A program made the translations under genes and the position numbers. A model generated the notes under the pieces. It was not told the origin of the DNA, did no database searches, and saw nothing but the letters and a program-made list of their open reading frames with translations. This document shows, piece by piece, positions 11,709-58,818 of a stretch of 64,000 bases of DNA (the stretch's first letter is position 1; each line of letters begins with the position of its first letter). Source of the stretch: Nitrosospira sp. Nl5 (GTDB taxonomy: Bacteria; Pseudomonadota; Gammaproteobacteria; Burkholderiales; Nitrosomonadaceae); assembly GCF_900102495.1 (NCBI RefSeq), contig NZ_FMVQ01000005.1:62001-126000 (forward strand). Reading direction: 5' to 3'.

Positions 11709-11952
11709 TTGAACCTAAATCCGGCAGTTGATCGCTCATTTTAATTTAGCGCAATGATGCATAAAGACTTTCTGTATCATTTGATTTTCACCTGTAAGGT
11801 GAGTTCGCTACAGGGCGGATTGCACGGTTTTTGCGGTACATGGCGGCGTTGCAACTTCTTGGAATGGAATGACCATTCCGCGTCGTTGCGGCTAGCCCTG
11901 CACCCCAAAAACCGCACACTCCACCCTGTCCAACTGCCGGATTTAGGTTGAA
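11709..11952. mobile_element. MITE-like element copy 1 with 5-bp target duplication
   Basis: A 234-base element (11714-11947) bounded by a perfect 17-base terminal inverted repeat: CCTAAATCCGGCAGTTG at 11714-11730 and its complement at 11931-11947. The direct repeat TTGAA flanks it (11709-11713 and 11948-11952). Inside, ACAGGG near 11813 pairs with CCCTGT near 11924, leading to a long imperfect hairpin whose apex is GGAATGG-AATGA-CCATTCC at 11861-11879. No coding frame of substance. It occupies almost the entire surE-pcm gap, ending 27 bases before the pcm start. Related to five other sites in the window. Confidence 0.8.
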
Positions 11953-11974
11953 CGCTCATCATTCCGGAATCGGT

Positions 11975-12610
11975 ATGACTTCCCAGCGTACCCGTGTACG
12001 CATGATTGAGCGCCTGCGCACGCAAGGTATCGTTGACGAAGTGGTTCTGGCGGCGATGAACGCCATTCCTCGTCATATCTTCGTGGAGGAAATCCTGGCG
12101 AGTCGCGCCTACGACGATGTCGCCCTACCCATCAATTTTGGCCAGACCATTTCAAGCCCGTTTATCGTGGCGCGCATGAGCGAATTACTGCGCGCAGGGT
12201 CAACTCTCGGCAGAGTGCTTGAAATTGGTTCCGGCTGTGGTTACCAGACAGCGGTATTGGCTCAGCTTGCGCGCGAAGTCTACTCGGTCGAACGCATCGG
12301 ACCATTACTTACCCGTGCTCGCATCCGTTTGCGGCAGCTGCGTCTCAACAATGTTCGCCTGAAACACGGCGACGGCTTTCTGGGGCTTTCTGAACCTGCG
12401 CCGTTTGACGGCATCGTCCTCAGCGCCGCGACTGCGCATACTCCTCATCAACTGCTGGAGCAACTGGCGGTTGGCGGCAGGATGGTTTTTCCCAAAGGAA
12501 GCGGAGAGCAGTTTTTGTGCGTTATCGAACATAATTCGCAGGGTTACACTGAGACAATGCTGGAAGAGGTGAGGTTCGTACCGATGGTGCCGGGTATCTT
12601 GAAAGGTTAA
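11975..12610 (+). CDS. pcm: Protein-L-isoaspartate O-methyltransferase
   Basis: Repairs L-isoaspartyl residues in aged proteins using S-adenosylmethionine. 211 residues from ATG 11975 ([19 protein letters not shown], matching the family N-terminus). Motifs: [16 protein letters not shown], the SAM-binding [16 protein letters not shown], and [11 protein letters not shown] near the end. An in-frame TTG at 11948 lies inside the target duplication of the upstream mobile element and is not a likely start. Ends four bases before nlpD. Confidence 0.96.
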
Positions 12611-12613
12611 GTA

Positions 12614-13708
12614 ATGCAGAACCGAAGGATAAGAATGAGGAACAAGAGAACCGGGCCGGTCCATCTGAACAATGGCGCTTTACTTCAGGCAGTTATGATG
12701 CGCTCTCGGCCCGCATTCCTTTCAGGAAGATTTTTTTCTTCGACTTTTTATTGTTCATCGCTCATTCTCTGTCTGGTGGTTGCGGGTTGCGAATCTACCC
12801 CGCAGCGCGCGCCTGTGACTGATGTAAACGTGGTGGAGTCCCAGAAGATTACGGAAAAACCGGATACAGTTCCGGAAACGGACGGTCAGCGGCCCAATTT
12901 TTATACCATACAGAAGGGCGACACGCTTTACAGCATTGCGCTGAACCATGGCATTGATCAAAAAGATCTAGCCCAGTGGAATAATATCCAGGACCCGGGC
13001 GCCATCCATATCGGTCAGCAGCTTAATTTATCCTCGCCTTCTCAACTGGCGCAACCCTCCCTATTCCCCCTTTCTGAGCCCACGCCCCCTTCCGCGCCAG
13101 GAATGGCTGTGCCGAACACCATTCCGCCGTTTGAAGATAAGCATGCGGTGAATACCGATAAGCTTAAGGTCGAACCCAAGGCGTTCAAGCTACCCTATTC
13201 GGAACAGGCGGTAGCGCTACTGAAGGGGGGAGCGGTGCCCGCGGCGGTTGTGCCAAAGATTGATGTGCCGGCCGGAAAAAATGTTGAAACCGGCATTAGC
13301 CCCGTGCCCTCGACCCTCGACGCGATGCGTGGCGAGGATAGCCTAGAATGGATCTGGCCCGCCAAGGGCAAGGTATTGGAAGGTTTTTCGGAAAGCACGA
13401 AAGGTATCGATATCGCGGGCAAACCGGGGCAGGCGGTCTCGGCATCCGCCGCAGGCAAAGTGGTGTACAGCGGCGCGGGATTACGCGGCTACGGCAAGCT
13501 CATTATCATTAAGCATAACAATACCTACCTCAGCGCGTATGCCCACAACAACAAACTTCTGGTGAAGGAAGGGCAAACGGTGGCTAAAGGACAAAAAATT
13601 GCTGAGATGGGAAATACTGACGCTACGCTGGTAAAGCTTCACTTCGAAATTCGCAAGAATGGGAAACCAGTGGATCCGCTAAAACACCTGCCCGGAACAT
13701 CCGGATGA
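12614..13708 (+). CDS. nlpD: NlpD-type LysM/M23 lipoprotein, amidase activator
   Basis: Outer-membrane lipoprotein expected to activate a cell-wall amidase (AmiC type) at the septum. A hydrophobic stretch ends in the lipobox LVVAGC (Cys near residue 59 from the first ATG; an internal start at MMRSRPAFLSG is equally possible). A LysM domain follows (YTIQKGDTLYSIALNHG..IHIGQQLNL), then a Pro/Ala-rich linker and a C-terminal M23 domain. The zinc ligands are lost: the HxxxD site reads KGIDIAG and the HxH site reads KLHFE, so it should not be a peptidase itself. Its TGA overlaps the rpoS ATG. Confidence 0.93.
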   Translation: MQNRRIRMRNKRTGPVHLNNGALLQAVMMRSRPAFLSGRFFSSTFYCSSLILCLVVAGCESTPQRAPVTDVNVVESQKITEKPDTVPETDGQRPNFYTIQKGDTLYSIALNHGIDQKDLAQWNNIQDPGAIHIGQQLNLSSPSQLAQPSLFPLSEPTPPSAPGMAVPNTIPPFEDKHAVNTDKLKVEPKAFKLPYSEQAVALLKGGAVPAAVVPKIDVPAGKNVETGISPVPSTLDAMRGEDSLEWIWPAKGKVLEGFSESTKGIDIAGKPGQAVSASAAGKVVYSGAGLRGYGKLIIIKHNNTYLSAYAHNNKLLVKEGQTVAKGQKIAEMGNTDATLVKLHFEIRKNGKPVDPLKHLPGTSG

Positions 13709-14664
13709 GCTACCGCCTCCATCGTGACGATGACGAACCGCCCGAGACGGACCCGCCCGAGCGGGATAACGCATCATCTGAGGGCTCCGAAGAAACGCCA
13801 TCCAAAGGAGGGAACGAAACGCTCGGCGACTTCCTTTTGACCGACGTCACCCAAATTTATTTCAACGAAATCGGCCATAATGCGCTCTTGACCGCGCAGG
13901 AAGAAGCGATTCTGACACGCCTGGTGAAGCAGGACGATTTCGCGGCTCGCCAGAAAATGATCGAATGCAACTTGCGGTTGGTGGTGAATATCGCTAAACA
14001 CTATACCAATCATGGAGTAGCGCTACTGGACCTGATCGAAGAAGGCAATATGGGCATGATGCACGCGCTGGACAAGTTTGATCCGGAACGCGGGTTCCGT
14101 TTTTCAACTTACGCTACGTGGTGGATACGTCAGAACATTGAACGTTGCATTATGAACCAGTCGCGTACTATTCGCCTGCCGGTGCATGTCATTAAAGATT
14201 TGAACATCATTCTACAAGCGTCTCGTCATCTGGAAGCACATACAGGCAAGGAACCCAAAGCGGAAGATGTCGCGCACTTGCTGGGACGCCCGGTAAAAGA
14301 GGTGCAGCGGATGCTGTCCCTGAATATGAGCATGATGTCGTTGGATGCGCCGCTCGATATTGACCCATTACTGTCCGTCGGCGACGTCATGGCGGACGAT
14401 CAAACTCCCGGTCCTGATCTCATGCTTGAAAAGTCTGAAATCAGATATCGCGTGCGAGAGTGGCTTAACCGGCTAAATGACAAACAACGATACATCATCG
14501 AGCAGCGCTACGGCCTCAACGGTGACGAAACGCAAACGCTGGAACAACTGGCGGAGAGACTCGATCTCACGCGTGAGCGCGTGCGCCAGATTCAGCTGGA
14601 AGCATTGCAAACATTGCGCGTAATATTAAGATGCGACGGTGTGTCGAAGGATGGGGTGTTTTAG
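13705..14664 (+). CDS. rpoS: RNA polymerase sigma factor RpoS
   Basis: Stationary-phase and general-stress sigma factor. 319 residues. Region 1.2 (LLTDVTQIYFNEIGHNALLTAQEE), region 2 (NLRLVVNIAKHYTNHGVALLDLIEEGN; KFDPERGFRFSTYATWWIRQNIER), region 3 (RTIRLPVHVIKDL) and the region 4 helix-turn-helix (LDLTRERVRQIQLEALQTLR) are all intact. The acidic N-terminus (first 40 residues) is non-conserved. It overlaps nlpD by four bases (ATGA); in enteric bacteria a major rpoS promoter lies inside nlpD. Confidence 0.97.
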   Translation: MSYRLHRDDDEPPETDPPERDNASSEGSEETPSKGGNETLGDFLLTDVTQIYFNEIGHNALLTAQEEAILTRLVKQDDFAARQKMIECNLRLVVNIAKHYTNHGVALLDLIEEGNMGMMHALDKFDPERGFRFSTYATWWIRQNIERCIMNQSRTIRLPVHVIKDLNIILQASRHLEAHTGKEPKAEDVAHLLGRPVKEVQRMLSLNMSMMSLDAPLDIDPLLSVGDVMADDQTPGPDLMLEKSEIRYRVREWLNRLNDKQRYIIEQRYGLNGDETQTLEQLAERLDLTRERVRQIQLEALQTLRVILRCDGVSKDGVF

Positions 14665-15036
14665 CAGATAGCGCCGAGGGAGTGCCGCAGCGGTATATTT
14701 GCCTGCCTTTTTAGCCAATGGAACAGGAGCAGTCTTCAATCCTCAAACTGTCCTTGCCCGCTTTTTGCTCAAACCCTTCACTCCGGCAAGACTGCCGTAA
14801 CCACCAAGTCGGCGGCATGGACAAGTGGTTTGTCCCTTCGAATTCCCTTTAGAACAATTCCCTTTAAACCGCTTTGAATCTTAAATCAGCGGACTTGTCA
14901 CATTAAGATATGTTTAAAGTGCAAATATTGGTATCATTGGCGGCCACGCGCGTAACCGCGCAAGCTTTGTAGATGAAGACTTTTTTAACCAACAACCGCA
15001 ACATATAGCGGCGGTTATTATTTCCGGGGACCACTT
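14665..15036. other. Intergenic region before the globin gene
   Basis: 372 bases with no gene. The only structure I note is AACCGC (14994-14999) pairing with GCGGTT (15011-15016), 21 bases before the globin start, which could shape the leader or bind a dimeric regulator. No T-tract follows, and I recognise no clear NsrR or FNR site. Confidence 0.35.
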
Positions 15037-15468
15037 ATGAATATGTCACACCCAGAGTTTACGGCACCTAATCCCGATCTGTGTACCGAAGAGGAGATTT
15101 CACGGCTGGTTCATGCCTTTTATGCAAGAGCCAGAAAAGATCCCTCGCTGGGACCGATCTTTGAAGCACATGTTACCGACTGGGACGCGCATTTTGTGCA
15201 AATGATCAATTTCTGGTCAATGAAGTTACGTGGAACCAGCCGTTTCCGCGGGGCGCCCATGCCCAAGCACGTCGCCCTGCCGGGACTTACCCCCGAATTG
15301 TTCGAGCGGTGGCTGCAACTCTTCCACCAAACGACAAGCGAGATGGGAAATCCGGTTTTGCAATTCAACGCGGATACGCTAGCTTTTCACATCGGCGGCA
15401 GACTGTGGCTGAGATATCAAATGGAGCGCTACCCCGACAGGCAGCTGGTCGAACTCAGTGGAGCGTAA
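15037..15468 (+). CDS. Group III truncated haemoglobin
   Basis: Small haem protein of 143 residues, class 3 of the 2-over-2 globins. Matching it from memory to Campylobacter Ctb: Tyr29 at B10 (FYARARKDPSLGPIF), His52 at E7 (DAHFVQMINFW), and proximal His78 at F8 (PMPKHVALPGL). In an ammonia oxidiser that makes nitric oxide, NO or peroxynitrite handling is a reasonable guess but is not shown by sequence. Single gene, no reductase beside it. Convergent with the DUF2130 gene. Confidence 0.88.
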   Translation: MNMSHPEFTAPNPDLCTEEEISRLVHAFYARARKDPSLGPIFEAHVTDWDAHFVQMINFWSMKLRGTSRFRGAPMPKHVALPGLTPELFERWLQLFHQTTSEMGNPVLQFNADTLAFHIGGRLWLRYQMERYPDRQLVELSGA

Positions 15469-15504
15469 TTTCCGGCCGATGTGAACGACCTGAGTTTGTG
15501 AGTA

Positions 15505-15571
15505 TTCTGTTCGGTTTCTTCCGGTCCTGGCTTAAGCCACACAACCTGGCCGGATGATTTACCGAACAGAA
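15505..15571. terminator. Long inverted repeat between convergent genes
   Basis: TTCTGTTCGGT (15505-15515) is the exact complement of ACCGAACAGAA (15561-15571); CCGGTCCTGG and CCTGGCCGG inside extend the pairing imperfectly. It lies between the converging globin and DUF2130 genes. It could act as a bidirectional terminator, although neither side has a strong T-run. Confidence 0.4.
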
Positions 15572-15646
15572 CGTGATTCCCTTTACTGTTCAGCTTCTTT
15601 CCCCCTTGGTCTTAGCTTGGCAATACGCTGCTACGATCACCATTAT

Positions 15647-16921
15647 TTACTCGCTCAAACCCAGGCTTTTCAATTCAAGTCCCTCGATTTCCTGCAACGA
15701 TTTGCCCGCGATTCCTTGCAGGTCTCCGTACATCCCCACCGTCGCGCCCATCACACGCATAATTTGTTCTTCCCGCTTGGCCCATTGCTTCATTATCGCT
15801 TTGCGTTCTTTATCCAGGTCGTCCTGCATGGTGGAAAACGCTTCGACGATAGCTTCCACGCGCTGACGGAAACGCGGGCCGGTAAGGTACTGGTAGATCA
15901 TCTCGGTTTTGGTTTGCAGGCCTTCGGAAGATTGTCGGGCAAGAGCAAGTTCCAGCAGTGATTGCCGCAGGATAAGCGCCACCGGCAACGCAGCGCGGGG
16001 ATGCGTCACCCAGATGCCATCAACCATTTCAAAAGTTTCCACGCCTTTCGGCAATATATGGCTCACAATGACAGCAATTTCCGCTTTTGCGGTACGCTGA
16101 TCTTCGCGCAATTTGGCCAGCCATAAATCGCTCCAGTTTCTGGTACGCTTGGTTTCCCATAGAATGGTGCCGCCCAATTGCCCGCCGGTACCAATGACGC
16201 GGTGCAACACATCTCCGCCATAGTCTCCCTTGGGTACCGGCTCGATCGCGTCGAAAGGGAATTTGGCGCGCAACAGATTCTCAAGCGCAAGCTCCTGCAC
16301 TTCTCCTTGCAATTGCTGTGAACCCTGCTCGGCTCTACGCTTCAGTTCTTCGATCTTTTGTTGCATGGAGGCGATGGTGTGGTCTTTTTCCATTACCTTG
16401 AGCTTGAGTCCTTCCTCCGCTTCCCGCCTGGCGTGAGCGCGTACTTCGGTTAGCCCATCCTGAACGCGTTTTTCCACAGTGAGTTCAAGCTCCCGCCTGG
16501 CATCGTCGAGTTCACGCTGCTTTTTTATAAGCTCGGCTTGCACCTTTTGGGCTGCAGCCAGCTTCTCATCGCGGCCTTTGAGCACTTCCTGGAGCTCGGC
16601 AAGTTCACGTGCCTTGTTCTCCAGTTCGGCGGCATTGGCAAGCTTTGCTTTTCTCGATTCATCGGCAATGACGCGGATGCGTTCGGCATTCACCTGTGTG
16701 GCGACCCGATCGGCTATCTGATTATCCAGCGTGCGCCTGGACTCCGCGATTTCCTTCTCTTTTTGGCGAATATCCAGTTCGCGCCCGGCGATTTCCTTGT
16801 CTTTCTGCAAGAGTTGCTGCTCGAACTGCTTGCGTGTGGCGTCGATCAGCGGTGCGGCGAGCGACTCTGTGAGCCGGATTTCAGCTTTACAGTTGGAGCA
16901 GGTAATGGTGGGTTCCGTCAT
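15647..16921 (-). CDS. DUF2130 coiled-coil protein with nuclease-like C-terminal domain
   Basis: 424 residues from ATG at 16921, preceded on the minus strand by AGGAAC; upstream in-frame residues are unlikely to be translated. A Cys pair near the N-terminus (ITCSNCKAEIRL) suggests a small metal knot. A long charged coiled coil (about 30-230) follows. The C-terminal part has GGDVLHRVIGTGGQLGGTILWETKRTRNWSDLW (split here by family knowledge into a beta-strand, Asp, then ExK), the pattern of the PD-(D/E)XK nuclease fold. The family is DUF2130; function is not established. Divergent from sodB. Confidence 0.8.
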   Translation of the reverse strand: MTEPTITCSNCKAEIRLTESLAAPLIDATRKQFEQQLLQKDKEIAGRELDIRQKEKEIAESRRTLDNQIADRVATQVNAERIRVIADESRKAKLANAAELENKARELAELQEVLKGRDEKLAAAQKVQAELIKKQRELDDARRELELTVEKRVQDGLTEVRAHARREAEEGLKLKVMEKDHTIASMQQKIEELKRRAEQGSQQLQGEVQELALENLLRAKFPFDAIEPVPKGDYGGDVLHRVIGTGGQLGGTILWETKRTRNWSDLWLAKLREDQRTAKAEIAVIVSHILPKGVETFEMVDGIWVTHPRAALPVALILRQSLLELALARQSSEGLQTKTEMIYQYLTGPRFRQRVEAIVEAFSTMQDDLDKERKAIMKQWAKREEQIMRVMGATVGMYGDLQGIAGKSLQEIEGLELKSLGLSE

Positions 16922-17220
16922 GTTTTGTTCCTGAAGTAGCAAAGGTGCCGGATTCTTTTGTTCGTTTGAGATGGAGATAATTCCTGGATTATAGGGCAAG
17001 CGGTGGGCCGCTCGTGTGTAAGCGGACATATTTCGAATATACTTGCGTTGACACTCGCCAGACAGGGGATAACGATTCAGCGTTCAGGATGGGAGGGGGA
17101 CCGGGGACATCCTTGATCTATCTTTCCTCCAAAATTAGTTATACTCAAGGTGTTGGATTCCAATACGAGAAAAAATGATAACGGATCGGATTTTTTTGTT
17201 ACCACATAGGAGCGAAAACG

Positions 17221-17838
17221 ATGAGCAACCAAAAGACTGGAAGTGCGCCGCACACCCTGCCACCTCTGCCTTACGCGGATAATGCGCTGGATCCTGTCAT
17301 TTCCGCCAATACGCTAAGCTTTCATTACGGTAAGCATCACAAGACTTATGTTGACAACCTGAACAAGCTGATTGCCGGTACGGAGCTTGCGGATTTGTCC
17401 CTGGAGGAGATCATTGCTTCAACAGCCGGCAAGGCGGATAAGACCGGGGTTTTCAATAATGCGGCACAAATCTGGAATCACACGTTCTACTGGAAGAGCC
17501 TGTCCCCGAAAGGCGGCGGTGAACCCCCCGCGGCTTTGAAGCAAAAAATCGAGACTTCCTTCGAGACCGTGGAAGCATGCAAAAAAGAACTGGCAGCTGC
17601 GGCAACGACTCAGTTCGGGAGTGGCTGGGCGTGGCTGGTGCAGGATGGCGGCAAACTCAAAGTGGTCAAGACGAGCAATGCTGATTTGCCTCTGACCAGT
17701 GGATTAAAGCCACTACTGACTATCGATGTATGGGAACATGCCTATTACCTGGATTACCAGAACCGGCGCGTGGATTATGTCAACGCCGTGCTCGACAAGC
17801 TGATCAATTGGGGTTTTGCGGCGGACAATCATGGGTAG
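17221..17838 (+). CDS. sodB: Superoxide dismutase, iron type
   Basis: Cytoplasmic superoxide dismutase of 205 residues. Metal ligands are His35 (FHYGKHH), His87 (NHTFYW), Asp169 and His173 ([11 protein letters not shown]). Gln83 in AAQIWNH and the FGSGWAWLV stretch favour iron over manganese. The N-terminus carries about ten extra residues compared with the E. coli enzyme but no signal peptide. AGGAG lies eight bases before the ATG. tyrS follows after 18 bases. Confidence 0.96.
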
Positions 17839-17856
17839 CGTGCCCCGCGGGCTACT

Positions 17857-19062
17857 GTGACCACGCAAAACTCAGAACAGCTGGAAGTTATCAAGCGCGG
17901 TTGTAGCGAGCTCCTGGTAGAAGAGGAGCTCGAGCAGAAACTTGCGTTAAATCGGCCACTCAGAATCAAGGCCGGATTTGATCCAACAGCGCCGGATTTG
18001 CACCTGGGTCATACCGTTTTGCTCAACAAAATGCGTCAACTGCAGGATTTAGGCCATCATGCCTTATTCTTGATTGGCGATTTCACCGGCATGATCGGTG
18101 ATCCCAGCGGCAAAAATACGACCCGTCCCCCTCTCACGCGCGAACAAGTGGTCGAGAATGCGCAATCCTACGCAAACCAGGTTTTCCGGATACTCAGGCC
18201 GGAGCAGACCGAAGTGGTATTCAATTCCACCTGGATGGATACGCTCAATGCCGCCGATCTGATCAAGCTGGCAGCCACTCATACCGTTGCGCGCATGCTG
18301 GAACGCGACGATTTTGGCAAGCGTTATCGAAGTAACAAAGCGATCGCCATTCACGAATTTCTGTATCCGCTAATCCAGGGCTATGATTCGGTTGCCCTCA
18401 AGGCGGATATTGAACTGGGCGGCACTGATCAGAAATTCAACCTGCTGATGGGACGGGAATTGCAAAAGCATTTCGGGCAATTGCCGCAGTGCATTCTTAC
18501 CATGCCGCTTCTGGAAGGGCTGGATGGGGTTAACAAGATGTCCAAATCGGCTGGCAACTACATCGGAATTACGGAGAGTCCCGGAAACATTTTCGGCAAG
18601 CTGATGTCTATTTCCGATGAATTGATGTGGCGGTACATTGAACTGTTGTCGTTTGAGCCGCTGAATATTATTCGCCAGTGGCAGCAGGACGTGAGGAATG
18701 GGGGTAATCCGCGCGATATAAAGGTAACGTTCGCCCGGGAGATCGTTACCCGTTTTCACAGCAGAAAAGATGCGGAAATTGCCTTGGCCGACTTCGAGGC
18801 GCGCTTCAAACGCGGTGCATTGCCGGAAGACATGCCGGAGAAAATGCTGTATGTTGAGAAAGAAGGGTTGGCCATTGCCCAGTTACTCAAACAAGCCGGG
18901 TTAACAGCAAGTACCACAGAGGCACTACGCATGATTGAGCAAGGCGGTGTAAAATTAAATGGCGAAAGGATCAGCGATAAAACTTTTAGCCTGCCCCGTG
19001 GTCAAACTGTTATAGTACAAGTTGGCAAGCGGAAGTTTGCCAGAGTAACAATCTCCGAATAA
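17857..19062 (+). CDS. tyrS: Tyrosyl-tRNA synthetase
   Basis: Charges tRNA-Tyr. 401 residues. Rossmann catalytic domain with the HIGH-type motif [11 protein letters not shown] and the KMSKS loop ([13 protein letters not shown]), then a C-terminal S4 RNA-binding domain ([19 protein letters not shown]). The start is GTG 17857. The placement of HLGH and KMSKS corresponds to the longer bacterial TyrRS type (TyrZ-like) typical of betaproteobacteria. The rRNA operon promoter begins 25 bases after its stop. Confidence 0.96.
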
Positions 19063-19086
19063 AAATAAAAAAGTTTATCAAAACCC

Positions 19087-19114
19087 TTGACCGGGTATCT
19101 GGTGTCTGTATAAT
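19087..19114 (+). promoter_or_regulatory. rRNA operon promoter
   Basis: TTGACC at 19087-19092 and TATAAT at 19109-19114 with a 16-base spacer, followed by a GC-rich discriminator (CCCGCC), the hallmark of stringently controlled rRNA promoters. The mature 16S begins about 235 bases downstream. Confidence 0.85.
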
Positions 19115-19154
19115 CCCGCCTTTCGTTGTCTGGCTAGAAGTTTTCAGGCAGCAT

Positions 19155-19166
19155 TGCTCTTTAAAA
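19155..19166 (+). promoter_or_regulatory. boxA antitermination site, 16S leader
   Basis: TGCTCTTTAAAA matches the boxA consensus TGCTCTTTAACA except for one base. It recruits the NusB-S10 antitermination complex in other bacteria. Confidence 0.75.
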
Positions 19167-19170
19167 ATTT

Positions 19171-19195
19171 ACAGCCGATAGGTGTGGGCACTTGA
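19171..19195 (+). other. 16S processing stem, 5' strand
   Basis: ACAGCCGATAGG-TGTGG followed by GCACTTGA pairs with 20908-20933 downstream of 16S (TCAAGTGTCCACAACC, TATCGGTTGT), with one bulge and two mismatches. This is the expected RNase III substrate that frees pre-16S rRNA. Confidence 0.75.
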
Positions 19196-19354
19196 CCGGG
19201 ACACCCGGCTATTTTGTCTTTCGGGGCGGAATATCCGGGTAGCTAAGAGTTGAAGTGCTCGCACGATGTAACAAAATTCCGGCGGCTATCTTGATGATAT
19301 CGGGGTAGAAGCTGGAATTGCAGTAACACGTCAAGCGAGAGTTTTACCAGTATT

Positions 19355-20893
<1,539 letters not shown>

Positions 20894-20907
20894 GAGAAGA
20901 TCCCTGT

Positions 20908-20933
20908 TCAAGTGTCCACAACCTATCGGTTGT
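20908..20933 (+). other. 16S processing stem, 3' strand
   Basis: The complement of the 19171-19195 leader segment, 18 bases after the mature 16S end. Confidence 0.75.
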
Positions 20934-21013: not shown

Positions 21014-21090
<77 letters not shown>

Positions 21091-21096
21091 CTAATC

Positions 21097-44294: not shown

Positions 44295-44362
44295 GTCAAC
44301 CTAAATCGGCAATCATAATACAAACTGAAAAGTGTGCGGTCAACTGATGGATTGAGATTCAA
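44295..44362. mobile_element. MITE-like element copy 3, between lptD and surA
   Basis: A diverged, short copy (44300-44357). Left end CCTAAATCGGCAATC; right end CAACTGATGGATTGAGA. Flanking bases GTCAA (44295-44299) and TTCAA (44358-44362) agree at four of five positions and look like an old 5-bp duplication. The interior 44312-44344 aligns with the right end of copy 2. Confidence 0.65.
44315..44343 (-). promoter_or_regulatory. Sigma-70-like promoter inside the element, facing surA
   Basis: On the minus strand: TTGACC (44343-44338), 17-base spacer, TATTAT (44320-44315). The start of transcription would fall near 44308, about 27 bases before the surA ATG. Both hexamers are inside mobile-element copy 3. 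Confidence 0.55.
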
Positions 44363-44430: not shown

Positions 44431-47298
44431 CTAAGGCCCTTCCACTGTGCCACTGCCCTGGCTCCCGGTCCTGGTGTAGCCAGGAATGCTGCGCTGCAAT
44501 ACCTGTAGCGGATTTGATCCGATTTGCATCAGGCCATTCAACTCAAGTTGCAAAAAAGCCGCCGTGGTTGTTCTCTGAGTGGCGAGGGTTAGATGCTGTA
44601 CGACGAATCGCAACGACCAGCAGCACGCATTATACTCAATCCCTGCCAGTCCTTCCAGAACTCTCTGATCCTGTAACGAGTAATTCAGCCGTGCCACGGT
44701 TTGCCATCTTTCCGACCATCGCCATTGTGATGAGGCGTCAACCTGGTGCAATACCTCGCGGGTAAAACGGTAGCCAAAATTCACCACCTTGCCAGCCTCG
44801 GGGCGGTAGCTCAGGCCTGAACGCACCACGTCCGCCAGGAGCCGGGACTGATCAAACTGCACACTGGAATCGGTGGTGATCTTCGGGGTGATAAACCCGG
44901 TAACTGCGGCGACCAGATCGGGTCTCCTGTCGATTGTCTCAGGTGCATCCAGGGTAATGCGGCGATTTATGAAACTCATTTGCTGACCAATGGCGAGGCG
45001 CAAACGTTCTTTGCCGGTATCTGCTTCGATCAGACGGGATGTGAGCGCAAAGGTAACCTGATTGGCGTCATTGATACGATCGCTGCCGCTGAAGCGATTC
45101 TCGCTCAGCATCTGGGCGAAGCTGAAATCCGTCTTGGCGGAATCGAAATTGGGGAGAAAACTTTGGTCGCGGAACGGCACATAAAGATATAGAAGCCGCG
45201 GTTCAAGGGTTTGAGTAAATTTCTCCCCGCGAAATTCTGTCTTCCGATCAAACACGATGCCGCTGTCCACGCTGAATATTGGCAATGTACGCGTCGGATC
45301 CGTATCCTGCGATGGGGTGCCAAAGGATTCCAGGTTATATCTGGTATGGTGAATGCCGATCTTGGGCGTGATATAACCATACGCGGTGCGCATGGGGTAG
45401 CTGACGCTGGGAAAGAATGTGACGCGATGGCCGCTTGTCAGCGTAGGATGGGAAAAATTGGCATAGCTACTGATCAGATTGAAATCCGCCCCCAGAACGT
45501 CAGATTTATTCGCTGCCAAAGTCACCTGTGGCAGACGCTTGTACGGCTCGGCGACTGCCGCGCGCGGATCCTGTATGGTCTGAAATTGCTGGACAAGTGT
45601 CGTTACATTCAAGGCACCGTTGTCTCCCAGATTACGGTTATACGCCACCAGACCCTGCTGCAACAGGTTGACTCGGGACGTCAAATTCATCGTGTTACCG
45701 AGATCACGGAAATAGGCGTCGTCGGAGACCCTGTTGTAGTCAAGGCGGGTGGAGAAACCCGCCCCGAGCGCGTGACTATGCCCAAACGCGACGCGATATC
45801 GGGTCTCTTTGGTTTGAAGGTCGTTCGGCAATATTTCCGCCAGCAAATTGCCATTCGAATTGGTTCCCAGGTAGCGGAATTCGGTATTCAACGCAACCCC
45901 GCGCCGGGACATCGCCCGCGTGGAGAATGTTGCATCGTAGTTGGGCGCGATGTTCCAGTAAAACGGCACGGTTAACTCGATACCAGTCCTGACATTGTAA
46001 CCATAGAGGGGCGCAAGCAACCCTGACTTGCGTTGGCCGCTAAATGAGAAATCCATCCACGGCGTGTACAATATCGGTACGTCCTTGAACGTGAGCTTGA
46101 CTTTCCGCGCAGTCCCTGTTTTTTTGGCGTTGTCGATTTCCAGGTTGTCCACCTGCAGGAACCAGTCGTCATCTCCTGCCGGACACGTCGTATAAGTTGC
46201 CTGCCGAAGCCGATATTGGTTCTCTCCTTCAAATAGCAGCATAGTGGCGTTGCCGCGGCTGCTGGCATCACGCAAACGATAGTTGGGATCATTCAACTGC
46301 CCGGTTTTGTTTGCCAGATTGAACCTGAGCCGGGAACCTTCCAATATGTCTCCACGTTGTTCCACACGCACGCCGCCTTCGGCCTCCACTGTGTCCGTAC
46401 TTTGATGGTATTTCATCCGATCAGCCGAGACAAACCGGTCGCCGCTGAACAACTCAGCCTTGCCGATCGCCTCAACCTCCTGCTCAACGTGGCCTTCCAG
46501 TCGGTCAGCGGCAATGAATATCGGTCTGCTTTTTTTCTTTTCCGTCCCGGTAGCAGGTATTCCCAGCTTGATTTCATCCTTCCGCGCCAGCGATGGGATA
46601 TCATCAGGTGCAACCTCGCCGCCCAGTCTCAGCCTGACATCGCCTTCCTGCACAAGGTGCCCCCGAAGGTGCTCGGTATCAGTAAACAGGGGGCTGTTCT
46701 TTTTGTCCCCCACCCCGGTAATTGGCATTGCCAATCTGCTTCCATTTTTCAATGCCGGTGACGCGGGAGGGGCAACAGCGGGGGCAGTCCGTCCACCCTG
46801 GGTGCGGAGCTTGGTTTCTCCCTCCTGTTCATGGTGTCCGGGTATCTGCTCCGCTCCTGCCAGCACGGGCTGGTTTTCTTTATTTTCCGTTTCGGCAGCA
46901 GGCGCCGCCAGCGTGCGCTCATCTTTTACAGGTGGCGATAGTGTATAGTTCTGCGTCGGCCTGGGCTGCATGTCTGGCGATGCGCTGCCGGCTTGTTCGA
47001 TGTTTCCCGTCCCAGGCTCATCGGTTTTTTTACGATCTTTCATTCGATCGGCTGAGCGAACAGGACCGCTGCGCAACTCGGTCTCGCCTCTGGCATCGAT
47101 CTCATATTCATGGTGGCCCTGTATGCGTTCCGTGCCAATCAGCACGGGTTTATTATTGTTTATTTCCGGTTGTGCGGAGGGGGCTGTCTGTTCGTGCTTG
47201 TTTTTCGGTGACGACGATGGCGTGTCGGCAAGTGCAGTGGATGCAAGGCAGAATAAAAAAGCGGAGCAGCGGATGGAGCGGGAAAAACGCGATTTCAT
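44431..47298 (-). CDS. lptD: LPS-assembly protein LptD with enlarged periplasmic N-terminus
   Basis: Outer-membrane barrel that inserts LPS with LptE. 955 residues, about 170 more than E. coli LptD. Signal peptide to ALA-D (residue 25). Residues 51-94, 144-170, 203-230 and 259-304 are four versions of one motif (P-hydrophobic-x2-A/T-E/D-x2-x-GH-x2-E..); the last runs into the conserved OstA-type domain (VSADRMKYHQSTDTVEAEGGV). The barrel follows from about 400. The cysteine pair CC in YNACCWSLRF and a single Cys in TYTTCPAGDDDW are present; the extra N-terminal Cys known from E. coli is not. Confidence 0.93.
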   Translation of the reverse strand: MKSRFSRSIRCSAFLFCLASTALADTPSSSPKNKHEQTAPSAQPEINNNKPVLIGTERIQGHHEYEIDARGETELRSGPVRSADRMKDRKKTDEPGTGNIEQAGSASPDMQPRPTQNYTLSPPVKDERTLAAPAAETENKENQPVLAGAEQIPGHHEQEGETKLRTQGGRTAPAVAPPASPALKNGSRLAMPITGVGDKKNSPLFTDTEHLRGHLVQEGDVRLRLGGEVAPDDIPSLARKDEIKLGIPATGTEKKKSRPIFIAADRLEGHVEQEVEAIGKAELFSGDRFVSADRMKYHQSTDTVEAEGGVRVEQRGDILEGSRLRFNLANKTGQLNDPNYRLRDASSRGNATMLLFEGENQYRLRQATYTTCPAGDDDWFLQVDNLEIDNAKKTGTARKVKLTFKDVPILYTPWMDFSFSGQRKSGLLAPLYGYNVRTGIELTVPFYWNIAPNYDATFSTRAMSRRGVALNTEFRYLGTNSNGNLLAEILPNDLQTKETRYRVAFGHSHALGAGFSTRLDYNRVSDDAYFRDLGNTMNLTSRVNLLQQGLVAYNRNLGDNGALNVTTLVQQFQTIQDPRAAVAEPYKRLPQVTLAANKSDVLGADFNLISSYANFSHPTLTSGHRVTFFPSVSYPMRTAYGYITPKIGIHHTRYNLESFGTPSQDTDPTRTLPIFSVDSGIVFDRKTEFRGEKFTQTLEPRLLYLYVPFRDQSFLPNFDSAKTDFSFAQMLSENRFSGSDRINDANQVTFALTSRLIEADTGKERLRLAIGQQMSFINRRITLDAPETIDRRPDLVAAVTGFITPKITTDSSVQFDQSRLLADVVRSGLSYRPEAGKVVNFGYRFTREVLHQVDASSQWRWSERWQTVARLNYSLQDQRVLEGLAGIEYNACCWSLRFVVQHLTLATQRTTTAAFLQLELNGLMQIGSNPLQVLQRSIPGYTRTGSQGSGTVEGP

Positions 47299-47419
47299 TT
47301 AACCTAAATCCGGCGGTAGCAAACCCACGATAGAGGTGAAGGTCAAGTGGCGCAAGACGTCTTCGTAGATCATAACCTAAACTGGAAAATGAGCGGTCAA
47401 CTGCCGGATTTAGGTTTAA
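47298..47419. mobile_element. MITE-like element copy 2, touching the lptD start
   Basis: A 112-base element (47303-47414). Left end CCTAAATCCGGCGGTAG (47303-47319), right end CAACTGCCGGATTTAGG (47398-47414). TTTAA is repeated at 47298-47302 and 47415-47419. The first T of the left repeat is the last base of the lptD start codon's complement, so lptD begins five bases from the element. A TTGACC box in the right end points toward lptD, but the matching -10 is weak. Confidence 0.78.
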
Positions 47420-49645: not shown

Positions 49646-49961
49646 CGAATCTCCTGAAGGCGACAATACATAACCTTTTAAAGTATATTTGACTTGGCAA
49701 GTCTAGCAGGCTGCCGGATTAAAGGAAAACTGGCTGCAAAAACATCTGCTGGTCCTATTTCGACGCATTCCTGCTCAATAGAACAACCGTTGGCAGCAAC
49801 AAGGGTACAGATTCAGGATACCAGATTCACGAGCGACGCCGTGAGGGATGCAACGCGGAATCGTCCGCGTTTGAGGATCGACATAAGCCGGCTCAGCGAT
49901 TGTTTTTATCGTGGGTGCGGAGCCGGGAATACGAGAGATATGTCATAAAGAGGGGAACTGA
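49646..49961. other. Divergent region between DUF3617 and ankyrin genes
   Basis: 316 bases without a gene. A stretch near 49707-49725 resembles the right end of the MITE-like family, but no partner end was found. Confidence 0.3.
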
Positions 49962-50621: not shown

Positions 50622-50694
50622 CAGGTAACAAGAATTTGCTCGGCAATCTTGCTCAATATATCGGATGCGCCGTATTAAAAGCCCATGCTGCTCG

Positions 50695-51969: not shown

Positions 51970-52041
51970 CGGTACCTCCCTTGTTATTTTGGGTGCGTAT
52001 AGAATCAAAGATCGCGGCGGCGACGCACCATCATGAGTTAA

Positions 52042-54192: not shown

Positions 54193-54715
54193 GGCGGTTC
54201 CTTTCTGGCGAAAATGCGGTTCTTGGGTTATTATAGTCGAATCCCGCCAAATATCTTATCAGGCAATTAGCTGAGATCTGAAGCGCTGTGAAGCGGCATG
54301 TTTCCGGGAGCCTGATCAACAGAAGCGATAAGGCCAATGTTGCCACCGTTTTTCTAGAAGACGGAAAAGAATCTGCTGTTCGTATTAGTCAAATTAGAAA
54401 GTATTCATACCTGTCGTCATACCATATTTTAACTGGCTTAATTGCTCCGGGAATGAAAAACCGGGGTGCGGGACTTCGCATCCCGTGCTCAGAGGGTCGA
54501 CCCAAGAAAGATGAGCCAGCACGGTCTCGTCGCGGATACGTTTTCGGCTACATATATTCAGTTTCAGTAATCCCACGGTCGTTAATTGAGGATGCGCTCC
54601 GAATGCGTCCTCCAGGGGACATTCCCACAAGAGGCTCTATTTGAGGAGGTTTCCTGCTGAAATCCTGTTCGACATTCAAACAACCCCTATAGGCTCCGCC
54701 TGAAAAAACCATTTC
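54193..54715. other. Divergent intergenic region before the RNase II gene
   Basis: 523 bases between two divergent genes. The short open frames are without recognisable motif. GAGGAGG at 54643-54649 resembles a ribosome site but no good start codon follows; TGA at 54701 is in frame with the downstream gene and excludes a longer RNase. Confidence 0.35.
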
Positions 54716-56572
54716 ATGAATGTCTTTTATGAAGAAGAAGGTACTTTTAAGGTTGGCGCCATCCTTGCCGACAATACCACTTCGCTTCAGGTGGAGGCGC
54801 CTCATGGCAAGCGCGCTAAAATAAAAGCGGCTTCGGTGTTGTTGCGATTTGACGCACCGTCCCTGTCCGAATTCATGGACCTTGCGCAAAGAACCGCCGA
54901 TGATCTGGACCCGAATTTTCTTTGGGAGTGCTGCGAGAGCGAGGCCGAATTCGCCAGCGATGCGCTGGCCGCAGAGTATTTTGGTCATGCAGCCAGTCCG
55001 GAGGAAGCTGCGGGCGTGCTGATCCGCTTGCATAGCGCACCCATGTATTTTTATAAAAAAGGCAGGGGTCGGTATAAGGCTGCCCCGCCAAAAGCGCTTG
55101 AGGCGGCACTTGCCAGTCAGGAAAAAAAGCGCCGTCAGGCGGAACAGCAAACCCGTTATGCGGAGTTACTGGGCACATTCACTCTACCGGAAGAATTCAG
55201 ACCGTCGCTATGCAATCTTCTCTATCGACCGGACAAAAATACGGTTGAATGGAAAGCGCTGGAGGCCGTTTGCACCGCAAACAGGCTGAGTGTTGCCAGA
55301 CTGCTGGAAAAATGCGGTGCGATACCGTCTACCCACGATTATCACGTCAATCGGTTTTTGCTGGAGCATTTTCCCGAAGGCACGGACTTCGGCACGCTTG
55401 ATGCAGCCGCCGAATTGAACGATCCGGAAGATCTGCCCATCGCCGATGTGGCCGCCTTCAGCATAGATGATGCCGCTACTACCGAAATTGACGACGCCTT
55501 CTCGGTCACGCCGCTGACTCTCGGCAGCTTCCGCATCGGTATTCACATTGCCGTTCCAATCTTGGGTATCCCGTCAGGTTCGTTGCTGGATACCGTGGCG
55601 GCACGGCGGCTTTCTACCGTATACCTGCCGGGCAATAAAATTACCATGCTGCCCGAAGCTGTAATACAGCACTATACATTGGGCGAAGAACGGCTGTGTC
55701 CGGCGCTTTCGATGTATCTCGACGTGGCGGACGATTTCACCGTTGTCAATACAACCAGCCGTATTGAACGCGTGAAGGTTGCCGCGAATCTCAGGCACGA
55801 CACATTGGAAGAGCGATTCAATGAATCTACCGTGGCGGGAGGAAATCTCGATCATCCTTTTGGCAAAGAGTTGCTGGCGCTGTGGAATTTTGCATGCAAG
55901 AGGGAAGCGTTCCGCGGCAAGACCAACGACAGCAATAACGAGAAAATCGATTACGGCTTTAACGTTCAGGATGACCGCATTACCATAAGCGAGCGCCGAC
56001 GGGGTTCACCAATTGACAAAGTAGTGTCGGAACTGATGATTTACGTGAATACCGAATGGGGCAGGCAATTGGCCGATAGCGGTGTTTCCGGCATCTATCG
56101 CAGCCAGGGAGGCGGCAAAGTCAGAATAAGCACGTCTCCCGCACCACATCAGGGTCTGGGTGTTTCACAGTATGCCTGGATCAGTTCGCCGATGCGTCGC
56201 TACGTGGATTTCATTAATCAGCGGCAGCTGGTCGCGCTGCTGCGCGGTGAGACGCCGCCGTATCCCAAGGAAAGCGATAGCCTGAGGACGTCCATGCGGG
56301 ATTTCGAGGCGGCCTATGAGATTTATGGAGACTTTCAGCGCACGATGGAGCGCTACTGGTGCCTGCGCTGGCTCTTGCAGGAAAAGGTCAATATAACGAG
56401 TGCGGAAGTTGTTAAGGAGAATCTGGTAAAACTGAACCATCTTCCCTTGATGGCGCGGGTGGCCTCGTTACCAGATGTGCCGCCAGAAACGAATGTTGAA
56501 TTGGAGATTTCTCAGATTGACTTGCTGGAGCTCACTTTCAACGCAAAATTTCTGCGTAAACTGGAAACATAG
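54716..56572 (+). CDS. RNase II family 3'-5' exoribonuclease
   Basis: 618 residues. The RNB catalytic signature AFSIDDAATTEIDDAFSV (about 248-265) holds the four metal-binding Asp; VYLPGNKITMLPEAV and the closing SQYAWISSPMRRYVDFINQRQL are family-typical. The N-terminal 240 residues are helical and weakly conserved, without a clear pair of cold-shock domains, and no basic S1 tail is apparent. It is therefore a shorter RNase II-like protein, not RNase R. ATG 54716 is the first possible start (TGA 15 bases upstream). Confidence 0.9.
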   Translation: MNVFYEEEGTFKVGAILADNTTSLQVEAPHGKRAKIKAASVLLRFDAPSLSEFMDLAQRTADDLDPNFLWECCESEAEFASDALAAEYFGHAASPEEAAGVLIRLHSAPMYFYKKGRGRYKAAPPKALEAALASQEKKRRQAEQQTRYAELLGTFTLPEEFRPSLCNLLYRPDKNTVEWKALEAVCTANRLSVARLLEKCGAIPSTHDYHVNRFLLEHFPEGTDFGTLDAAAELNDPEDLPIADVAAFSIDDAATTEIDDAFSVTPLTLGSFRIGIHIAVPILGIPSGSLLDTVAARRLSTVYLPGNKITMLPEAVIQHYTLGEERLCPALSMYLDVADDFTVVNTTSRIERVKVAANLRHDTLEERFNESTVAGGNLDHPFGKELLALWNFACKREAFRGKTNDSNNEKIDYGFNVQDDRITISERRRGSPIDKVVSELMIYVNTEWGRQLADSGVSGIYRSQGGGKVRISTSPAPHQGLGVSQYAWISSPMRRYVDFINQRQLVALLRGETPPYPKESDSLRTSMRDFEAAYEIYGDFQRTMERYWCLRWLLQEKVNITSAEVVKENLVKLNHLPLMARVASLPDVPPETNVELEISQIDLLELTFNAKFLRKLET

Positions 56573-56631
56573 AACTGTCGTTATCCATGTGACGAGGAGG
56601 TCATAGTTGCTTTACAATAGACGAGACTTAT

Positions 56632-56767
56632 GCATAATCCGCCAAAGGACCTGTAGCAAGCTCGCCAAAGGTGAAGGCAGATGGCAAGAAAAGTTTTGAG
56701 AGTCATCGTGCTCGGTTGAAAAAATGAGATGAAAAACGAATGGTCAACTGCCGTGCTCAGGATTTAA
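56632..56767. mobile_element. Decayed MITE-like element copy 4
   Basis: Between the RNase and TonB-like genes. The interior GGTGAAGG..TGGCAAGA and AAAATGAG resemble copy 2, and the right end reads CAACTGCCG, six extra bases, GGATTTA. The left end (around TAATCCGCC, 56635) is badly eroded and no target duplication is visible. Confidence 0.5.
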
Positions 56768-56800
56768 CGTTCTACGGTCTAATTTCGAATTTTTGGCACA

Positions 56801-57712
56801 TTGAGCGCCACCTCAAACATACCGGATTTTAATTTAGCTACACTCCCCGGCGGATTGTTACATTCATCGTCACGCTTGAATGTGGCAATATTGGTATCGG
56901 TGATTTTGCACGCGGTTGTGTTATTCGGTGTTGCCGTCAAAATTCCGCTTCCAAGGATCGACCATACCGCTGTCCCGTTGGAAGTGGTGCTGGTCAACAG
57001 TAAATCCCCATCAAAACCGGGCAATGCGGATGCGTTGGCGCAGGCTAACCTCAATGGTGGCGGCAACACTGATCGCGACCGCCGCGTCAAAACACCCTTG
57101 CCCGCGCCGTCGCCTGTTGATACAGCCACTGCGACGCAAAAAGCGGAAGAACTTGAACAGGAGGCTGAAAAGTTGATGAATGCGGTCAATAGCGATCAAG
57201 ACATCCTTCAAGCCGAGGCCCATCCCGAGCAGTTCGAGCAAAATCAGAATCACAATATTATCGATGCCGCCGATCTGGTGCGGCGCAGTTTCGAAATTGC
57301 TCGCGTGGAAGCGCAAACCGCCCATGATTACGATGCTTATCAGAAGCGTCCAAAACGAAGATTTATCGGGGCTCGCACTCAGGAATATCGCTTTGCTCGC
57401 TATGTCGAAGACTGGCGTATCAAGGTGGAGCGGATCGGCAACATGAATTACCCCGAGTCAGCGAGGCGGGAAAAGCTCTACGGTAATTTGCAACTTACCG
57501 TTGGCATCAGGTCTGACGGCAGCCTGGAATCGCTTGAAATAAACCGTTCGTCAGGGAAAGCAATTCTGGATGAAGCAGCGATACGCATCGTTAAACTGGC
57601 GGGGCAAAATGGATTCTCTCCCTTCCCACCCGATATCAGTCGAGACACTGATGTCCTGCACATTACCCGCACCTGGGCGTTCACGCGGTCTGACGAGCTC
57701 ACAAGCCAGTAA
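56801..57712 (+). CDS. TonB-like energy-transducing protein
   Basis: 303 residues from TTG 56801 (no good ribosome site; no better start seen). One membrane anchor, VAILVSVILHAVVLFGVAV (about 28-46), a periplasmic linker with a short coiled coil (ATQKAEELEQEAEKLMNAV), and a C-terminal TonB domain (NYPESARREKLYGNLQLTV; SSGKAILDEAAIRIV). The linker is not the usual Pro-Lys repeat. No exbB or exbD nearby. The stop TAA lies in the target duplication of the next element. Confidence 0.88.
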   Translation: MSATSNIPDFNLATLPGGLLHSSSRLNVAILVSVILHAVVLFGVAVKIPLPRIDHTAVPLEVVLVNSKSPSKPGNADALAQANLNGGGNTDRDRRVKTPLPAPSPVDTATATQKAEELEQEAEKLMNAVNSDQDILQAEAHPEQFEQNQNHNIIDAADLVRRSFEIARVEAQTAHDYDAYQKRPKRRFIGARTQEYRFARYVEDWRIKVERIGNMNYPESARREKLYGNLQLTVGIRSDGSLESLEINRSSGKAILDEAAIRIVKLAGQNGFSPFPPDISRDTDVLHITRTWAFTRSDELTSQ

Positions 57713-57836
57713 TCCCGAATCCGGCAATGGAGCGCTGTTTTTAAGCTTAACGCCATTTCGCGTCGTTGCCCTGACTTCAAAAAACCGCCCCTCCCATCCA
57801 GACCATCCAGGTCAGCCTGACGGCTTCAAGGGTAAT
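57709..57836. mobile_element. MITE-like element copy 6 with GTAAT duplication
   Basis: 118 bases (57714-57831). Left end CCCGAATCCGGCAATGG then AGCGCTGTTTT, parallel to the left end of copy 1; interior CGCGTCGTTGCC and AAAAAACCGCC match one arm of the copy 1 hairpin; right end CAGCCTGACGGCTTCAAGG is eroded. GTAAT at 57709-57713 and 57832-57836 is a perfect 5-bp duplication that contains the TAA stop of the TonB-like gene. Confidence 0.65.
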
Positions 57837-57894
57837 TGGCGCAGATCGAACCTGTGCTGTTGCTCAGTATCTGTATATCAACTAATAGTCCGCC

Positions 57895-58722
57895 ATGCCT
57901 GATTTGTACGCCGTTGTTGGTAATCCCATCGCCCACAGCAAATCACCCCTGATTCATGCCGAATTTTCCCGGCAAACGGGTCAGGAGATGCGTTACGAAG
58001 CCATACTTGCTCCGATGGATGCTTTCGCTGAAACTGTGGCAATTTTTAGGGAGCGAGGCGGCAAGGGAATAAATGTCACTGTCCCGTTCAAGCTTGAAGC
58101 CTGCAATATTTCAAGCCGTCTCAGCGCGCGAGCCCATGCCGCGCAAGCGGTTAACACGCTTGTATTCGATGGCGGCGGGATCCTCGGCGATAATACTGAT
58201 GGCGCCGGATTGATGCGCGACATCATGATCAATCAAGAGTTTTCCATTACTGCGAAGCGGGTATTGCTAATGGGTGCGGGCGGGGCAGCTCGCGGCGCGA
58301 TGCTGCCGCTACTGAAACAGGGACCGTCCATATTGACCATCGCCAATCGCACCGGACAAAAAGCGCACGAATTACAGCAGCAATTTTCGCACTACGGAAA
58401 CGTTGTATCCGGCGACTATGCTGATCTTCGCGGGGAAAAATTCGATCTCGTCATTAACGCTACCTCCGCCAGTCTGAATGGCGAACTGCCGTTACTGCCC
58501 TCTGGCATTTTCACTGGAGAATCTCTGGCCTATGACATGATGTATGGTGGACATACTCCTTTTTTGCAATTCGCAAAAAAGGACGGTGCAACGCGTCTGG
58601 CAGACGGTACCGGTATGCTGGTAGAGCAGGCGGCTGAGTCGTTCTTTTTGTGGCGCGGCGTAAGGCCACAAACGGCTCCGGTAATCGAGATGCTTAAGAA
58701 ATTCAAGCCGCGGAAGGTGTGA
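57895..58722 (+). CDS. aroE: Shikimate dehydrogenase
   Basis: NADP-dependent step of chorismate synthesis. 275 residues. Shikimate-site NPIAHSKSPLIHAEF, catalytic Lys in NVTVPFKLEA, catalytic Asp in GDNTDGAGLMRD, dinucleotide loop LLMGAGGAARGAMLP with NRT following in TIANRTGQK (NADP preference). Ends at TGA 58720-58722, which overlaps the left end of a MITE-like copy. Confidence 0.96.
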   Translation: MPDLYAVVGNPIAHSKSPLIHAEFSRQTGQEMRYEAILAPMDAFAETVAIFRERGGKGINVTVPFKLEACNISSRLSARAHAAQAVNTLVFDGGGILGDNTDGAGLMRDIMINQEFSITAKRVLLMGAGGAARGAMLPLLKQGPSILTIANRTGQKAHELQQQFSHYGNVVSGDYADLRGEKFDLVINATSASLNGELPLLPSGIFTGESLAYDMMYGGHTPFLQFAKKDGATRLADGTGMLVEQAAESFFLWRGVRPQTAPVIEMLKKFKPRKV

Positions 58723-58818
58723 CAAATAGCCGGTAGGGAACAGGGGGTCAAGTGGCGAGAAAAGAATCTTGTGTCATGCGCCAAGCTGAGAAATGAACCG
58801 TCAATTACCGGATTCAGA
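58721..58818. mobile_element. MITE-like element copy 5 at the aroE stop
   Basis: About 98 bases. Left end AAATAGCCGGTAG, interior GGTCAAGTGGCG and GAGAAATGA, right end CAATTACCGGATTCAGA, co-linear with copy 2. No convincing duplication at the flanks (GGTGT, TTCAT), so it is probably old. Confidence 0.55.

What the first reader, a model, noticed from the sequence alone, without database searches (positions are those of the whole stretch)
11709..58818. Family of six short MITE-like elements with CCTAAATCCGGC ends
Six intergenic sites (11714-11947, 44300-44357, 47303-47414, 56632-56767, 57714-57831, 58721-58818) share the end CCTAAATCCGGCAGTTGA followed by YCGCTCATTTT, and most have its inverted partner. 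None codes for a protein. Flanking 5-bp direct repeats differ from copy to copy (TTGAA, TTTAA, GTAAT, and a diverged GTCAA/TTCAA), which is what transposition predicts and simple duplication does not. From memory, the CC-TAAAT terminus resembles IS1380-family ends such as those of ISEcp1, so mobilisation in trans by such a transposase is a guess.
Basis: partly seen in the sequence, partly recalled or inferred. Interest (0 to 1): 0.75.

Follow-up and report, generated by a model that had tools for sequence, protein, structure and literature searches.

The report
Short jumping-DNA family without own enzyme
The window holds two intact copies and several worn remnants of a small jumping DNA element that makes no protein of its own and was most likely moved by a borrowed enzyme related to the IS1380 family; this is an ordinary kind of element, but the family is newly traced here, and some copies outside the window carry a second, different repeat as a passenger.

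Summary
The family is real. The 17-nt end occurs 65 times (up to 2 mismatches) in the window's genome; the reversed control 0 times. Exact 5-bp target duplications flank 24 of 40 end pairs, all WTNAW, against 7% for mispaired flanks. The surE-pcm copy is missing from 21 of 22 congeners, 18 with a single TTGAA. One of four sites tested is occupied at the same target in one congener. The IS1380 guess is supported at clade level: autonomous 1.6-kb elements with the same ends and the same 5-bp NTNAN duplications encode IS1380-like transposases, though five of five scored below NCBIfam's IS1380 cut-off. The window's own draft genome shows no such gene: orphan MITEs. MITE and autonomous elements share little beyond their ends. 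A 385-bp class, not in the window, carries a REP-like hairpin unit that also occurs alone and in tandem arrays. New member of a known kind.

The parts
11714..11947 (+). Intact 234-bp MITE ('mid' class) between surE and pcm; 17-bp terminal inverted repeats CCTAAATCCGGCAGTTG, identical in both arms
   Evidence: (E 7e-77); fold z = -11.1; absent at the junction in 21 of 22 congeners
11709..11713 (.). left copy of target duplication TTGAA
   Evidence: single TTGAA in 18 of 22 congeners
11948..11952 (.). right copy of target duplication TTGAA
47303..47414 (-). 112-bp MITE (short class) between lptD (-) and a Mur ligase gene (+); one end perfect, the other with 2 mismatches to the 17-nt end
   Evidence: (E 2e-21); absent in 6 of 6 congener loci aligned
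47298..47302 (.). left copy of target duplication TTTAA
47415..47419 (.). right copy of target duplication TTTAA
44300..44357 (-). decayed relic, flanks GTCAA/TTCAA
   Evidence: (44309-44356; best E 5e-4)
56632..56767 (-). decayed relic, no clear left end or duplication
   Evidence: (56635-56759; best E 1e-7)
57714..57831 (+). strongly decayed relic, flanks GTAAT/GTAAT
   Evidence: (two pieces, best E 4e-3)
58721..58818 (-). decayed relic, left end lost
   Evidence: (58746-58817; best E 2e-4)
   Evidence: (best E 2e-6)
7342..7396 (-). additional probable relic (fragment of one half)
   Evidence: E 2e-4

Best explanation
[quoted passage not shown] Shown: shared ends, 5-bp duplications, empty sites, high copy number, and autonomous elements elsewhere with the same ends and the same target pattern. 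Inferred: trans-mobilisation itself, and that the donor has been lost from (or was missed in the draft of) this genome, leaving an orphaned, decaying family.
For: Ends: 65 in the genome against 0 for the reversed control. Duplications: 24 of 40 pairs exact at 5 bp and 32 of 40 within one mismatch, 0 of 40 at each offset from 1 to 5, 111 of 1560 (7.1%) for mispaired flanks; 24 of 24 fit WTNAW (one overlapping alternative pair in L087 dropped before the count). Own genome alone: 11 of 22 exact, 17 of 22 within one mismatch. Empty sites: 21 of 22, 6 of 6 and 21 of 21 loci at three sites, 4 congeners at the fourth. 0 of 27 paired own-genome copies lie inside an ORF of 150 aa or more (unpaired ends not examined). 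Autonomous elements: 1638 bp in viral contig L136 (1180-2817), ATTAG on both sides, PF13701 at E 1e-24; 1639 bp in G103 of the same order with ATAAA and ATCAC; of 80 named genome loci, 63 have both ends (reversed pattern 3 of 80), and 30 of 60 with flanks have exact 5-bp repeats (3.4% for mispaired flanks), with T at position 2 and A at position 4 in 30 of 30 (several loci come from one genome and are not independent). Copy number: 0 to 103 ends per genome in the genus.
Against: No matching transposase in the own genome, a 34-contig draft. Similarity between MITEs and autonomous elements is short and almost all terminal, so no particular parent is identified. 16 of 40 pairs lack an exact duplication. 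At the L064 site congener G011 has a copy at the same target, so not every copy is a species-specific insertion. The five transposases scanned are all under NCBIfam's IS1380 cut-off. Movement was not observed.
Confidence: 0.92

Rival explanations
1. Conserved regulatory RNA or DNA hairpins (terminator, processing site, riboswitch) kept at fixed loci.
For: The 234-bp copy folds far better than shuffles (z -11.1). In the 15-copy alignment 88.9% of cells pair against 35.7-42.3% when slid; percentage paired is reached by 0 of 500 shuffles, cells with double changes by 3 of 500 and the covariation score by 4 of 500. One site is occupied in two species.
Against: The structure was derived from one of the aligned copies and the copies are related, which inflates those measures; pairs with double changes (8) are reached by 238 of 500 shuffles and further pair types by 493 of 500. 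Sites are mostly empty in congeners. Rfam: gathering scan of the window gave only rRNA and tRNA; permissive scan of ten copy-bearing loci gave one weak hit outside the copy. The consensus scan found no terminator- or promoter-like site at the 11714 copy.
Confidence: 0.04
2. MITEs mobilised by a transposase of another family that happens to share the end sequence.
For: The candidate transposases also give weak NCBIfam matches to IS701, IS4 and IS1634 models, and none of the five scanned reaches the IS1380 cut-off.
Against: IS1380 is the best model by more than 100 bits in five of five (142.8-153.4 bits); PF13701 86.8 bits against a cut-off of 34.7 (one protein scanned); ends, duplication length and target pattern agree within one clade. 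IS1634 model: no match in the own genome.
Confidence: 0.03
3. RAYT/REP-type repeats moved by a tyrosine transposase.
For: Y1_Tnp matches in 13 of 23 genomes of the genus, the own one included; the long MITE class contains a REP-like hairpin.
Against: The MITEs have 17-bp inverted ends and 5-bp target duplications, which REPs are not known to make (recalled). 0 of 24 fetched Y1_Tnp loci carry the REP-like unit; the MITE ends themselves were not searched for in those loci.
Confidence: 0.01

Closest known systems
IS1380 family (ISEcp1, IS1247)
   Same: DDE_Tnp_1_4 transposase, about 1.65 kb, ends beginning CCT, 5-bp duplications. In L102 (same taxonomic family) a PF13701 gene lies between CCTGAATTATTCAC and CCTGAATGTTTCAT. 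PMC3281130 lists IS1247 (IS1380 family) as 1672 bp with a 5-bp duplication (passages seen).
   Different: The elements of the window encode nothing; the autonomous elements that share their ends score 142.8-153.4 bits, under NCBIfam's 180-bit IS1380 cut-off, in five of five scanned, so they look like a sister group.
Bacterial MITEs in general (MITEPye1 linked to IS1182, PMC11578231; NEMIS, ERIC, Nezha as named in PMC3733652)
   Same: Size, inverted ends, target duplications, intergenic position, foldback (passages seen).
   Different: Other ends and another mobilising family; no passage that I saw describes an IS1380-linked MITE.
GTAG/CGTC-tagged REP repeats (PMC3733652)
   Same: The unit carried by the long class has a CGTC- or GTNG-like tag beside a bulged hairpin. 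The paper reports REPs inserted inside palindromes (section 7) and says that CGTC REPs lack a dedicated transposase (abstract).
   Different: The unit is about 140-150 bp, not 20-40 bp; it forms tandem arrays of period 99-152 bp and also rides inside a DDE-type MITE.

Membership tests
MITE | short element with terminal inverted repeats | tested here: met
   17-nt ends, 91-386 bp, 40 pairs
MITE | target-site duplication | tested here: met
   24 of 40 exact 5 bp, with controls
MITE | insertion polymorphism (empty sites) | tested here: met
   21 of 22 congeners at 11714; 6 of 6 loci aligned at 47303; 21 of 21 at the L069 site; at the L064 site 4 congeners empty, but G011 occupied at the same target and G002 carrying another copy 34 bp away. 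Four of ten joined sites were searched.
MITE | no transposase gene inside | tested here: met
   no ORF of 100 aa or more lies within either intact window copy
MITE | autonomous element with matching ends | tested here: met
   in other bacteria; not in the own genome
MITE | mobilisation in trans | not testable with these tools
   needs a transposition assay
IS1380 family (the autonomous partners) | PF13701 DDE_Tnp_1_4 domain above cut-off | tested here: met
   L136 protein 86.8 bits against 34.7; the only one of these proteins scanned against Pfam
IS1380 family (the autonomous partners) | NCBIfam NF033539 curated cut-off of 180 bits | tested here: not met
   142.8-153.4 bits in 5 of 5 proteins; hence 'IS1380-like', not filed as members
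IS1380 family (the autonomous partners) | 4-5 bp duplication and CCT-type ends (recalled; 5 bp for IS1247 in PMC3281130) | tested here: met
   30 of 60 exact 5-bp repeats; CCT predominates at the first three positions
REP (the unit inside the long class) | GTAG or CGTC tag beside a short hairpin | tested here: inconclusive
   tag-like bases and hairpin in many copies, but the whole unit is far longer than a REP
REP (the unit inside the long class) | copies flank a RAYT (Y1_Tnp) gene | tested here: not met
   0 of 24 fetched Y1_Tnp loci, about 1.5 kb each side at most; PMC3733652 expects this of GTAG REPs, not of CGTC REPs

The most novel reading that the evidence does not exclude
The long class is a composite parasite: an IS1380-like MITE that took up a REP-like hairpin unit in the loop of its central palindrome and then spread it. 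In genome G005, 18 of 21 unit matches lie beside or between MITE ends (positions compared by hand; 44 first-look candidates, 21 scored), whereas G016 has 27 unit matches and a single MITE end at up to one mismatch. It would be a DDE-transposon route of dispersal for a REP-type repeat that has no transposase of its own, beside an unknown route for the free copies.
Probability: 0.5. Interest if true: 0.55.

Novelty: new member of a known kind. Interest (0 to 1): 0.4.

Why it matters
It names the likely mover of an abundant repeat family in an ammonia-oxidiser-like genome (AMO family gene present) whose congeners carry from 0 to 103 end copies, so the family is a source of differences between species. 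It also marks a widespread IS1380-like clade by its ends. The passenger unit bears on a question that PMC3733652 leaves open: how REP-type repeats without a dedicated transposase spread.

Tried and rejected
IS1380 transposase in the own genome: none. IS1634: none. PF13701 loci of relatives: of 30 fetched (L102-L131), none has the MITE end at up to 4 mismatches on both sides of the transposase match; L114 (G002) holds a MITE and a PF13701 fragment about 1 kb apart. Plasmids: no record covers 80% of the element; a 30-base end query gave one plasmid at 24 of 30 bases and one exact 17-base match, both regions fetched but not searched for a second end. Covariation as proof of an RNA: mixed and weak (the unit, 2 of 22 pairs). 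RAYT as mover of the unit: not supported. My first count for the L064 site was wrong: one locus that I had taken as empty belongs to G002, whose contig begins inside another MITE copy, and G011 is occupied; mended, and the odds of the best explanation were lowered from 0.93 to 0.92 and those of the RNA rival raised from 0.03 to 0.04 and those of the other-family rival lowered from 0.04 to 0.03.

Papers. Searches that showed me no IS1380-linked MITE and no MITE of this genus: 20 of 427 listed; 12 of 116 listed; 8 of 946 listed. Seen as passages: PMC4133298, PMC11578231, PMC3281130, PMC3542288. PMC10969869: term search with no occurrence, no text seen. PMC3733652: abstract, section 7 and passages. 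The rest: listings only.
Full report
Observation. The 18-nt end has five matches at up to three mismatches in the window, mean 0.00 in 100 shuffles. In the genome that contains the window (34 contigs, 3.03 Mb) the 17-nt end has 65 matches at up to two mismatches, and the reversed pattern none. The end-like match at 18036 lies in a tyrosyl-tRNA synthetase gene.

Anatomy. Own-genome copies fall into classes of about 90-160, 235 and 385 bp. One end reads on as GACCGCTCATTTTT, the other as GGACAGGGTGGAGTG. The 234-bp copy folds back along its length (z -11.1), a 386-bp copy likewise (z -7.8). Across 15 copies 88.9% of cells keep the pairing. Three of five measures exceed nearly every shuffle (0, 3 and 4 of 500), two do not (238 and 493 of 500); the structure came from one of the copies and the copies are related, so I do not read this as proof of a selected RNA. 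0 of 27 paired own-genome copies sit inside an ORF of 150 aa or more; in five of the 27 (L049, L055, L065, L069, L070) a neighbouring ORF's stop codon lies in the duplicated 5 bp.

Transposition. With pairs chosen by their ends only, 24 of 40 have an exact 5-bp flanking repeat and 32 of 40 at most one mismatch; shifted by 1 to 5 bp the count is 0 of 40 each time; flanks of different copies match in 111 of 1560 pairings. All 24 fit WTNAW. One overlapping alternative pair was dropped before the count.

Empty sites. I searched four of ten joined sites against 23 genomes of the genus and aligned fetched loci. At surE-pcm (11714) 21 of 22 congeners align through the junction without the element; 18 read TTGAA once, three a one-base variant. 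G002 has extra bases upstream of the junction that match no MITE profile. G010 could not be aligned across: its interval holds copies of the hairpin unit described below. At lptD (47303) 6 of 6 loci aligned are empty, but none reads TTTAA, so the single target copy is not shown there. At the L069 site 21 of 21 loci are empty, with varied bases at the target. At the L064 site four congeners (G013, G014, G018, G021) align empty. G011, however, carries a 385-bp copy at the same ATAAT target in the same orientation as the 237-bp copy of the own genome; outside the unit the two are 80.1% identical, each nearer to other copies (rank 13 and 16 of 27). G002 carries a further copy at another ATAAT about 34 bp away, split over two contigs. 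Either the target was hit more than once, or G000 and G011 share an old insertion and the unit was gained or lost later. Their flanks are themselves only about 80-85% identical, so the 80% does not decide.

The mover. The own genome has no PF13701 match and no match to the L136 transposase. Viral contig L136 holds an autonomous 1638-bp element with one end identical to the MITE end and ATTAG on both sides and a 514-aa frame matching PF13701 at E 1e-24. Among 399 genomes of the order 29 match this protein, three of them over nearly its whole length at 47-49% identity; the element of G103 has ends CCTAAATCCGGCAGTT and CCTATTTCCGGCAGTTG with ATAAA or ATCAC. The genome-contig scan found 421 relatives and kept 80, several from one genome; 63 of 80 have both ends (reversed pattern 3 of 80), 30 of 60 with flanks have exact 5-bp repeats (122 of 3540 mispairings), with T at position 2 and A at position 4 in 30 of 30. 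The common NTNAN target is the closest link to the MITEs. Five proteins of this clade score 142.8-153.4 bits on NCBIfam's IS1380 model, far above any other model but under its cut-off of 180, so I say IS1380-like. The MITEs share with these elements little beyond the terminal 17-27 bp; descent by internal deletion from one of them is not shown.

Distribution and age. At up to one mismatch 17 of 23 genomes of the genus carry the end, 1 to 103 times, and 6 carry none; two of 18 genomes outside the genus match, one of which (G039) has short elements with CCTAGATCCGGCAGTTGACCGCTT ends and TTGAA flanks. Nearest copies are 82-92% identical in the own genome and 84-96% in G005, which fits an older family here and a more recent burst there. 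Decayed or partial relatives of the L136 transposase occur in G003 and G002.

The passenger. The 385-bp class differs by about 150 bp placed in the loop of GGAATGG/CCATTCC. That unit matches in 21 of 23 genomes of the genus and in one of 18 others (G038), including five genomes of the genus without a MITE end at up to one mismatch (G003, G006, G007, G008, G012). Arrays have periods of 149, 150, 152 and 99 bp. It holds a REP-like hairpin beside a CGTC/GTNG-like tag. Of 24 Y1_Tnp loci fetched, 0 hold the unit. In G005, 18 of 21 matches lie beside or between MITE ends; of four matches in the own genome three are listed, and these three lie inside MITEs. PMC3733652 describes REPs inside palindromes and CGTC REPs without a transposase; 'nitroso' does not occur in its main text.

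Verdict. An ordinary kind of element, well supported, with a newly linked type of mover, one shared site that needs more strains, and an unusual passenger in a class not present in the window.

Noticed in passing
L088:1046-1184; arrays L335:728-1210, L336:734-1150, L337:664-1160, L338:814-1267: A hairpin unit of about 140-150 bp with a REP-like core, dispersed and in tandem arrays across the genus, also carried inside the 385-bp MITE class.
   Followed up: partly
L204:1075-1326 (genome G010): Copies of the same hairpin unit lie in G010's surE-pcm interval, where the window's genome has the MITE: two unrelated repeats in one interval.
   Followed up: partly
L380 (genome G011, reverse strand 421-805), L064:1012-1248, L241 and L234 (genome G002): Copies of different class at the same ATAAT target in two species, and a third copy at an ATAAT about 34 bp away in a third species: a repeated target or an old shared insertion.
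   Followed up: partly
window 18036-18053: Close match to the MITE end inside the tyrosyl-tRNA synthetase gene, apparently a coding coincidence.
   Followed up: yes
L156 (genome G103), about 1-3121: An IS1380-like element seems to be inserted into another copy of itself, with ATAAA on both sides.
   Followed up: no
L139:499-649, L141:1906-2038, L142:5215-5347 (viral contigs): Elements of about 130-150 bp with the same ends in viral contigs, flanked by TTCAG or ATAAA on both sides, with interiors that look unlike those of the window (not compared further).
   Followed up: no
L049, L055, L065, L069, L070 (own genome): In five of 27 paired copies the duplicated 5 bp contains the stop codon of a neighbouring ORF, so the duplication keeps that gene's end.
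   Followed up: partly
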